A stretch of 64,000 bases of DNA, taken from NCBI RefSeq assembly GCF_013205025.1, contig NZ_JABMLE010000002.1:1193670-1257669 (forward strand), given 5' to 3'. Positions 12,219 to 14,022 of this stretch are shown piece by piece. Made by a program: the position numbers and the translations under genes. The notes beneath the pieces were generated by a model, which made no database searches, had not been told where the DNA came from, and saw only the letters and a program-made list of their open reading frames with translations. How positions within the stretch are numbered: position 1 is the first letter of the stretch; every line of letters starts with the position of its first letter. This DNA comes from Rathayibacter sp. VKM Ac-2857. Lineage in GTDB: Bacteria > Actinomycetota > Actinomycetes > Actinomycetales > Microbacteriaceae.

Positions 12219-14022
12219 GTGCACCGTCATCCTGCCCCCCCCCCCGCCGTTGCGTCGGCACCCCTTCACCGTCGCTGCCTCCCTCGCCCTGACCGTCGGC
12301 CTGCTCGGCTCCGCCACCGCCGCCCACGCCGCTGTGACGCCCCCGGCCACCCCGACGCCCACCGCCAGCGCGACCGCCGCGCACGCTGAGCTCAAGGTGA
12401 CCACCCGCGGCGAGCTCATCCTCAAGCCCGGCGAGAAGCCGAAGGCCGGCACCGAGGTGAAGTGGACCATCACGGTCACCAACACCGGTGACGTCGCCCT
12501 CAACGACCTCACCACGTGGACCACCGACACCTTCCTCGATTTAGAGCCCGGCCAGACCGGCGAGCTCAATGTCGAGTTGACCTACCTGACCCAGGACGAC
12601 CTCACCAACGGCTACACCGTTCTCGACGGCGTCATCGGCGGGACGACCAGGACCGGCAAAATATTCACCACGCCCTTCACCGCCCGCCTCGCCCTCCCCA
12701 GCCCGACGCCGACCCCTGCTCCGAGCACGCCGGCTCCCACCCCGACGACACCGGCGCCCGCCCCGACGACACCGGCACCGGCACCGACTGCCGCGCGGGG
12801 CGCCTCCCTCAGTGCGACCGCGCGCGGCGAGCTCGTCCTCAAGCCCGGCGAGAAGCCGAAGGTCGGCACCGACGTGAAGTGGACCATCACCGTCACCAAC
12901 ACCGGCGACGTCCCCCTCGACAGAGTCGCCGAAGAATTCATCCAACCCGGCCTCCACTTGGAACCGGGCCAGGCCCGCGAGCTGACCACGTCGACAACCC
13001 TCAATGAGATGCAACTTCAGGTCGGCTTCGCCAACCTCGATATCTTCGTCACCGCAACGACACCCCCCGGCGCATCGGTCGGTGCACTCCTCAGCGGCCT
13101 GCTCGCGCTCCCCAGCCCGACGCCCGCACCGACCCCAACCACGCCGGCACCTACTCCGACGACGCCGGCACCCACCCCGACCACACCGGCGCCCGTCCCA
13201 GCCGGTCAGGGCGCCCTTGCAGCCACCGCCCGCGGCGAGCTCGTGCTCAAGCCGGGTAAGAAGCCGAAGGTCGGCACCCCCGTGCAGTGGACCATCACCG
13301 TCACCAACACCGGCGACGTCCGCATCGACTCCATCCGAAACGCAGTCATCGGGGGCCTCCTCGACCTGAAGCCCGGCCGGAGCGGAAAGCTCATCGGATC
13401 GATCGGCCTCACCCGGACCGACCTCACCAACGGCTACGCCGTCCTCGACGTCCCCGTCACCGGAAAGAACGCGAAGGGCGAAGAGATCATCGCCCCGCTC
13501 TCCGCCCGATTCGACTTCTCCACCCCGACGCCGACCCCCACTCCCCCCACCCCGACACCCACTCCGCCCACGCCGACGCCGACGCCTGGTCCCCCCACGC
13601 CGACCCCCACGCCGACGCCGACGCCGACGCCGACGCCGACGCCTGCTCCCCCCACGCCGACTCCCACGCCGACGACACCAGCACCCACCCCGACCACACC
13701 GGCACCCACGCCCACCCCTCCGGGCCCCACGCCGGCCACGCCGACGCCCGCCCCGGTCACTCCCGCACCGGCGCCCTCGCCGGGCACCCCCGCAGCCATC
13801 GCACCGGCCACTGTCGTACCCGCCACTTCCGGCACGACGGGCACGACCGCGAAGAGCCCGACCGCCGCTGAAACGTCGAAGCGCCGCCTCGCCGAGACCG
13901 GGTCCGACGCGGCGGGCGCGCTCTCCGCCGCCGGGATCCTCACCGCCCTCGGCGCGATCGGCGTGGTCGTCGGCCGCCGTCGCCGCCGCAACCGCTCGGC
14001 CACCGACCGAACGGCCCACTGA
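12219..14022 (+). CDS. Surface protein B: three DUF11-like domains, LAXTG anchor; out of frame at an 11-C tract
   Basis: The start homologous to genes A and C is GTG 12219 with AGAGGAG upstream. Reading from it, a run of 11 C (12235-12245) puts the signal peptide out of frame and translation stops at 12389. With 10 C the protein would begin VHRHPAPPPPLRRHPFTV and run on as a 600-residue homologue of A and C. It would have a signal peptide to AAHA, three ATARGELVLKPGEKPKVGT domains, long PTPTPTPP linkers and a LAETG sorting signal with RRRRRNR. The downstream frame is intact, so the gene is not otherwise decayed. Readings: a phase-variable OFF state, slippage during expression, an alternative TTG start at 12250 without a ribosome site, or a sequencing error in the C run. 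Confidence 0.75.
12235..12245 (+). repeat. Homopolymeric C11 tract at the start of surface gene B
   Basis: Eleven consecutive C, immediately after GTG CAC CGT CAT CCT G. Genes A and C have no such run at the equivalent position. One C fewer, or two more, restores the frame. Confidence 0.85.

What the first reader, a model, noticed from the sequence alone, without database searches (positions are those of the whole stretch)
12219..12389. Candidate phase-variation switch: C11 tract puts surface gene B out of frame
The start homologous to genes A and C (GTG 12219, good ribosome site) leads into 11 C residues (12235-12245). From there translation terminates at 12389, while the full 600-residue surface protein stays open in the next frame. 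Ten C would give VHRHPAPPPPLRRHPFTV and a normal signal peptide. Long homopolymers at the 5' end of surface genes are classic slipped-strand contingency loci, but I know of few such cases in high-GC actinobacteria. A homopolymer sequencing error is the main alternative.
Basis: partly seen in the sequence, partly recalled or inferred. Interest (0 to 1): 0.75.

Follow-up and report, generated by a model that had tools for sequence, protein, structure and literature searches.

The report
C-run leaves surface gene out of frame
A run of eleven C's near the start of one of several duplicated surface-protein genes, probably from a plant-associated Rathayibacter, puts the gene's start out of step with its otherwise intact body; it could act as a slip-prone on/off switch like those known from Bifidobacterium, but nobody has yet looked whether the run varies.

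Summary
C11 lies at 12235-12245, in codons 6-9 after a conserved Shine-Dalgarno and GTG (12219). The GTG frame ends at 12389; the surface-protein body is open to 14022 in the +1 frame. All 9 body gaps against paralogue C are multiples of three, and the signal peptide differs from A by 4 synonymous and no replacement changes, so the break is recent or switchable. The source is very probably Rathayibacter sp. VKM Ac-2857 (Illumina, 692x); a miscall is possible but not favoured. Runs of 9 or more C are ordinary in the genus (107 in 15 genomes); of 69 others examined, 57 lie between predicted coding ORFs and 12 in doubtful ORFs. None of the 8 homologous starts has the run: a single-gene, lineage-specific event. 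Best reading: a de facto slipped-strand switch, assembled 'off', in one surface paralogue. Rivals: decay, miscall, ribosomal +1 slippage, a TTG start at 12250. Close precedents: Bifidobacterium and Gardnerella. Variation could not be tested; public reads would decide.

The parts
12170..12188 (+). conserved 5' block GATGCGAGCATTCGTCGTC upstream of the start
   Evidence: GCGAGCATTCGT present in 7 of 9 aligned family members, B included; role (promoter or leader) inferred
12207..12218 (+). Shine-Dalgarno region (AGAGGAGCCCCC) of gene B
   Evidence: AGGAG before the start in 9 of 9 family members aligned
12219..12389 (+). short frame from the conserved GTG start through the run to a stop (56 codons and stop)
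   Evidence: start homologous to those of A (10630) and C (14348)
12235..12245 (+). homopolymer C11
12250..12252 (+). TTG in the body frame directly after the run, no Shine-Dalgarno visible; possible alternative start
   Evidence: inference
12261..12265 (+). site of a second, 1-nt gap (after 12264) relative to 8 of 8 homologous starts
12247..14022 (+). gene B body: signal peptide, three DUF7507/DUF11 repeats, Pro/Thr linkers, LAETG sorting signal with hydrophobic and Arg-rich tail
10630..11901 (+). paralogue A, start and body in frame
14348..15973 (+). paralogue C, start and body in frame
16302..18053 (+). more distant paralogue D, no LPXTG-type end seen
   Evidence: weak family matches; DNA matches to the 5' part of B
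18361..20319 (+). more distant paralogue E (start at ATG assigned by eye)
   Evidence: weak family matches; DNA matches
20646..24803 (+). more distant paralogue F, the largest
   Evidence: DNA matches; not scanned against Pfam

Best explanation
Gene B is one of a tandem set of six genes (A-C close, D-F more distant) for surface proteins with Ig-like repeats and a cell-wall sorting signal. In this lineage the C-rich first codons have become a pure run of 11 C, and a nearby 1-nt deletion has occurred. As assembled, ribosomes that start at the conserved GTG read out of the body's frame and stop after 56 codons, so the protein is off. A run of this length is expected to gain and lose C at replication by slipped-strand mispairing, so cells of a culture should differ in whether B is made: a de facto on/off switch of one member of a surface-protein family. 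Shown: the run, the frames, the intact and selectively maintained body and signal peptide, the absence of the run from 8 homologous starts. Inferred: slippage, reversibility, the surface role and any benefit.
For: C11 between a conserved start and the body. The body is kept as protein: 9 of 9 body gaps against C are multiples of 3; the two gaps that are not lie at the tract and at 12264. The signal peptide differs from A by 4 synonymous and 0 replacement changes in 24 codons, and from G008 p1 by 5 and 1. Whole-gene dN/dS of B (0.57-0.77 in 5 pairs) is within the range of the 10 pairs without B (0.51-0.81). Leader block and Shine-Dalgarno are retained. The LPXTG anchor model is over its cut-off and the genome has three sortase matches. 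Published actinobacterial analogues: PMC9187656 (abstract and sections 15 and 21) and PMC11287997 (abstract and section 11; one tract was 9 in most and 10 in some colonies).
Against: No read-level or strain-level variation could be examined. 0 of 8 homologous starts, from three genomes, have the run. Of 69 other long runs examined, 57 lie between predicted coding ORFs and 12 in doubtful ORFs, so there is no sign of a set of in-gene contingency loci, though the stricter test has little power for genes of this composition. B has two indels, not one. B has paralogues, and loss of one copy may cost little.
Confidence: 0.45

Rival explanations
1. Recent decay: B is a redundant paralogue that has lost its start by two indels; the run is an incidental hypermutable sequence and switching plays no part.
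For: Two separate indels at the 5' end; 57 of 69 other long C runs lie between predicted coding ORFs, where constraint on frame is absent; paralogues nearby; another family member, G006 L060 15832-18141, also has start and body in different frames; D shows no sorting signal.
Against: No stop or frame change in 591 body codons; the signal peptide shows only synonymous change from A, though gene conversion could do this too; leader and Shine-Dalgarno intact.
Confidence: 0.25
2. Miscall: the true run has another length and B is simply in frame.
For: Homopolymers are the usual weak spot (recalled). Instrument (NovaSeq) and kit are given in PMC7498432; whether PCR was used is not stated. A length change alone would bring start and body together.
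Against: 692x coverage by 150-nt reads and SPAdes --careful, if the window is VKM Ac-2857; eleven C is well inside a read. The second indel after 12264 is not in a long run and is unlikely to be an error.
Confidence: 0.12
3. Recoding: some ribosomes slip +1 within the C run (CCC-C), or RNA polymerase slips on it, so B is made at a low level from C11 without a change in DNA.
For: The body frame is the +1 frame relative to GTG. CCC-C is a +1-prone sequence; next to the start codon in E. coli the rate is as high as 1%, and m1G37 and EF-P restrain it (passages of PMC4519876). The run lies in codons 6-9, near the start.
Against: 0 of 8 homologous starts have the run, so it is not an inherited programmed site; expected yields are low; no stimulatory element was looked for.
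Confidence: 0.1
4. Start shift: B is translated from TTG 12250, directly after the run, giving a short but complete signal peptide; the run is then leader sequence.
For: TTG is in frame and followed by Arg-Arg-His and the conserved hydrophobic core; most other long C runs examined are outside predicted genes, and 2 of 70 lie in leaders upstream of a Shine-Dalgarno and start.
Against: Nothing but C and G directly before TTG, so no Shine-Dalgarno; 8 of 8 relatives start upstream with AGGAG and ATG or GTG.
Confidence: 0.08

Closest known systems
Bifidobacterium breve UCC2003 sortase-dependent pilus genes bbr_0113 and bbr_1889 (PMC9187656; abstract and results sections 15 and 21 read)
   Same: Actinobacterial gene for an LPXTG-anchored surface protein, split at its 5' end by a G/C homopolymer; good start and Shine-Dalgarno only on the upstream piece; downstream piece without a Shine-Dalgarno.
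   Different: There the tract varies within populations, strains with the pieces in frame make pili, tracts occur in several species, and a dedicated sortase lies in the cluster. Here none of these is shown; no sortase is near the gene, the repeats are DUF7507/DUF11, and the signal-peptide core lies downstream of the run.
Gardnerella homopolymer-associated surface genes (PMC11287997; abstract and results section 11 read)
   Same: Actinobacterial genes, many with surface-protein motifs and LPXTG sites, linked to homopolymers of 8 or more; about 70% of G/C tracts lie upstream of a predicted ORF and about a quarter of tracts inside one; one tract differed by one base between colonies.
   Different: Median of 20 G/C tracts per genome and a repeated tie to surface-protein genes. 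Here the genes beside the other runs were not annotated, so such a tie was not tested; the run of B is the only one examined that is placed inside a gene by homology.
Homopolymeric tracts at 5' ends of prokaryotic genes, e.g. Listeria inlA poly(A) (PMC2831843; abstract read)
   Same: 5' homopolymer whose length sets the frame of a surface protein, giving a very short product when off.
   Different: Poly(A)/poly(T) in that survey; here poly(C) in a genome of 72-73% G+C.

Membership tests
Slipped-strand contingency (phase-variable) locus | simple repeat in the 5' coding part or promoter of the gene | tested here: met
   C11 in codons 6-9 after GTG 12219
Slipped-strand contingency (phase-variable) locus | intact rest of the gene in another frame | tested here: met
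   591 codons open; 9 of 9 body gaps against C in multiples of 3
Slipped-strand contingency (phase-variable) locus | tract length varies between cells or strains | not testable with these tools
   one genome per species held; reads not available
Slipped-strand contingency (phase-variable) locus | expression switches with tract length | not testable with these tools
   needs protein data
Slipped-strand contingency (phase-variable) locus | tract kept in homologous genes of relatives (supporting, not strictly defining) | tested here: not met
   0 of 8 other family starts, from three genomes, carry the run
Slipped-strand contingency (phase-variable) locus | similar in-gene tracts in other surface genes of the genome (supporting) | tested here: inconclusive
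   of 13 other runs of 9 or more C/G in the genome, 9 lie between predicted coding ORFs and 4 in doubtful ORFs; neighbouring genes were not annotated, and the stricter flank test does not flag gene B itself
Bifidobacterial sortase-pilus G-tract switch | LPXTG-type anchored protein | tested here: met
   TIGR01167 20.7 bits against a cut-off of 15.9
Bifidobacterial sortase-pilus G-tract switch | pilin cluster with its own sortase | tested here: not met
   three sortase matches in the genome, none in the window; the one on the same contig is at C2:62640, about 1.1 Mb away
Bifidobacterial sortase-pilus G-tract switch | population heterogeneity of tract length | not testable with these tools
   reads needed

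The most novel reading that the evidence does not exclude
The C11 run is a two-level device: replication slippage sets the frame of a cell lineage, and in 'off' lineages ribosomes slipping +1 on CCC-C, restrained by EF-P and m1G37, still make a trickle of the surface protein, so that one run gives a graded, growth-state-dependent surface rather than a clean on/off.
Probability: 0.07. Interest if true: 0.65.

Novelty: new member of a known kind. Interest (0 to 1): 0.36.

Why it matters
If the run varies, it would be the first phase-variable surface gene reported for Rathayibacter as far as the searched library of open-licence papers shows (0 papers hold both 'Rathayibacter' and 'phase variation'; 1 holds 'Microbacteriaceae' with it, once each). 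It would also show how a switch can arise by chance in one copy of a duplicated, fast-diverging surface family. The published reads, with the other 11-nt runs of the same genome as stutter controls, make it directly testable at little cost.

Tried and rejected
Gene B alone as query in genome contigs gave 187 pattern matches but no relative; an alignment of A, B, C and five relatives gave two loci, both of Rathayibacter sp. VKM Ac-2856. So there were no further named relatives and no strain-level comparison. A GC-skew test for runs inside genes flagged 0 of 70 runs as flanked by coding sequence on both sides, but it does not flag gene B either, as this Pro/Thr-rich family has high G+C at codon position 2; it is weak evidence for such genes. 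dN/dS as a test of decay of B was uninformative for the body: the first domain gives 0.78-1.95 in all 15 pairs, with or without B, probably inflated by codon bias, so only the signal peptide and the phase of gaps carry weight. Whole-body nucleotide alignments with A contain gaps that are not multiples of three (B-A 5 and 428; the B-free pair A-C 241 and 62), put down to repeats and to the domain that A lacks; the count against C is used instead. The idea that the run is an inherited, genus-wide switch was rejected. Structure prediction was not run: it would not bear on the frame question. The other nine genus genomes (37 of 107 runs) were not examined for context, and the genes beside the runs were not annotated.

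Full report
What is there. The window reads AGAGGAGCCCCC-GTG at 12219, then CAC CGT CAT CCT G and eleven C (12235-12245, in codons 6-9), then GCCGTTGCGTCGGCACCCC and the conserved signal-peptide core. The GTG frame ends at 12389 after 56 codons. The surface-protein body is open to 14022 in the frame one base further on. It is the only C or G run of 8 or more in the 64 kb. Dinucleotide shuffles of the window contain such a run in 11 of 100 cases.

What the gene is. A (10630-11901), B and C (14348-15973) are close tandem paralogues; A and B are each 62% identical to C. D, E and F downstream are more distant: DNA matches to the 5' part of B fall in all three, D and E have weak family matches, F was not scanned. 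The body of B has a signal peptide, three repeats that match DUF7507 (PF24346, E 2e-10) and DUF11 (PF01345, E 1.3e-9), Pro/Thr linkers and an LAETG sorting signal with a hydrophobic and Arg-rich tail. The genome has three sortase matches, none in the window. That class E sortases use LAXTG signals is recalled, not tested.

Where it comes from. The window is G000:C2:1193670-1257669 of an assembly of 8 contigs and 4,606,669 bases; C2 has 1,409,124 bases. Table 1 of PMC7498432 (ANNOUNCEMENT section read) lists Rathayibacter sp. VKM Ac-2857 with 8 scaffolds, N50 1,409,124 and 4.6 Mb: Illumina NovaSeq, 150-nt pairs, 692x, SPAdes, biomass from a single colony, from Brachypodium distachyon without visible symptoms, without the tunicaminyluracil gene cluster. 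The identification is by numbers, not by sequence. G008 is Rathayibacter sp. VKM Ac-2856.

Relatives. At E 1e-20 or better the 5' region of B has matches in 3 of 15 genus genomes, the window's own included; at E 0.001 in 15 of 20 relatives, many of these short matches of low complexity. The comparison of starts therefore rests on three genomes: A, B, C; G008 p1-p3 (p1 cut by an assembly gap); G006 g1-g3.

Is B alive? In the 5' alignment of these nine only B has the run. B differs from the other eight by 4 nt in the tract region and by 1 further nt after 12264. Against C there are 11 gaps: the two at the 5' end are not multiples of three, the nine in the body are. Against A over 12150-12720 the only frame-changing gaps inside the aligned part are the same two; over the whole body the alignment with A also shows gaps of 428 and 5 nt, and the B-free pair A-C shows 241 and 62, which I put down to repeats and to the domain that A lacks. 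Signal-peptide codons: B against A 4 synonymous and 0 replacement differences in 24 codons; against p1 5 and 1; against C 7 and 3; against p2 10 and 6; against p3 10 and 4. Gene conversion could add to this. Whole-gene dN/dS of B against A, C, p1, p2 and p3 is 0.57-0.77; the ten pairs without B give 0.51-0.81. The first domain gives 0.87-1.95 for the five B pairs and 0.78-1.69 for the ten others, so it does not single out B. Two flanking genes between G000 and G008 or G006 give 0.06-0.22 at dS 0.12-0.32, while A, B and C differ from each other at dS 0.49-0.55: the copies look older than the species split (inference), and the break in B young by comparison.

Are C runs special here? The genome has 63 runs of 7 or more, 14 of 9 or more and 10 of 10 or more. 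Fifteen genus genomes, the window's own included, hold 2 to 15 runs of 9 or more each, 107 in all. I examined 70 of the 107, from 6 of the 15 genomes. Apart from B, 57 of 69 lie between predicted coding ORFs, and 12 inside ORFs in which at least one flank of the run has third-position G+C of 0.80 or less. A stricter flank test finds 0 of 70 inside coding sequence on both sides, and two in leaders upstream of a Shine-Dalgarno and start; it does not flag B either, so it has little power for this gene family. Long C runs are thus common but mostly outside genes, and B is the only one examined that is known, by homology, to part a start from a body. This cuts both ways: it makes B exceptional, and it is what one would expect if the 5' end of B had lost its constraint. 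Runs outside genes need not be idle: in Gardnerella about 70% of G/C tracts lie upstream of ORFs (PMC11287997, section 11).

How it most likely works. A run of 11 C should slip at replication; a Gardnerella tract was 9 in most and 10 in some colonies, and Bifidobacterium breve uses a G-tract between the start piece and the LPXTG piece of pilus genes (PMC9187656, abstract and sections 15 and 21). By analogy the assembled cells are 'off' for B and others may be 'on'. This is inference. Plain decay of a redundant copy is the strongest rival: there are two indels, not one, and a G006 paralogue shows start and body in different frames inside its Ala/Pro/Thr linker. A miscall is possible but not favoured at 692x. 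Because the body is in the +1 frame, ribosomal +1 slippage on CCC-C (as high as 1% next to the start codon in E. coli, as stated in PMC4519876, passages read) could give a low level of protein from C11. TTG 12250 is a further, weaker possibility, as it lacks a Shine-Dalgarno.

Compared with what is known. It works like a homopolymer contingency locus if the run varies; it is not filed as a proven member, because variation and switching could not be tested and the same run was not found in relatives. It differs from the bifidobacterial case by lacking a nearby sortase and by having the signal-peptide core downstream of the run. No paper in the searched library holds both 'Rathayibacter' and 'phase variation'.

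Verdict. Interest 0.36.

Noticed in passing
L060 15832-18141 (-) (G006:C1): A family member in another Rathayibacter also has its start and signal peptide in a different frame from its body; the break lies in the Ala/Pro/Thr-rich repeat linker, not in a homopolymer.
   Followed up: partly
10630-15973 and L058 7415-12899: Signal peptides show low dN/dS (0-0.45 in 15 pairs) but the first Ig-like domain gives 0.78-1.95 in the same pairs; codon bias inflates the values, yet the contrast suggests a diversifying surface domain.
   Followed up: partly
16302-18053: Paralogue D ends in AQTSSDRTAH without an LPXTG-type signal, as if a deletion had joined a domain start to the end of another copy.
   Followed up: no
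L063 5010-5020 (G000:C1:1553109-1553119): Another 11-nt G run lies between a 1148-residue secreted-looking protein gene and the start of a gene with a signal-like N-terminus, next to an inverted repeat ACCGGCCGGC/GCCGGCCGGT.
   Followed up: no
L075, L077 (G005), L121, L126 (G008): In these four loci a long C run begins directly after a predicted stop codon (distance 1), hinting at a link with 3' ends of genes.
   Followed up: no
L115 1-15 (G008:C1 start): A contig of an Illumina assembly begins inside a G15 run, so long C/G runs can break such assemblies and their counts in drafts may be too low.
   Followed up: no
12193-12207: A short CCAT repeat (three copies plus CCA) lies in the leader of B and abuts the Shine-Dalgarno; A has fewer copies.
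   Followed up: no
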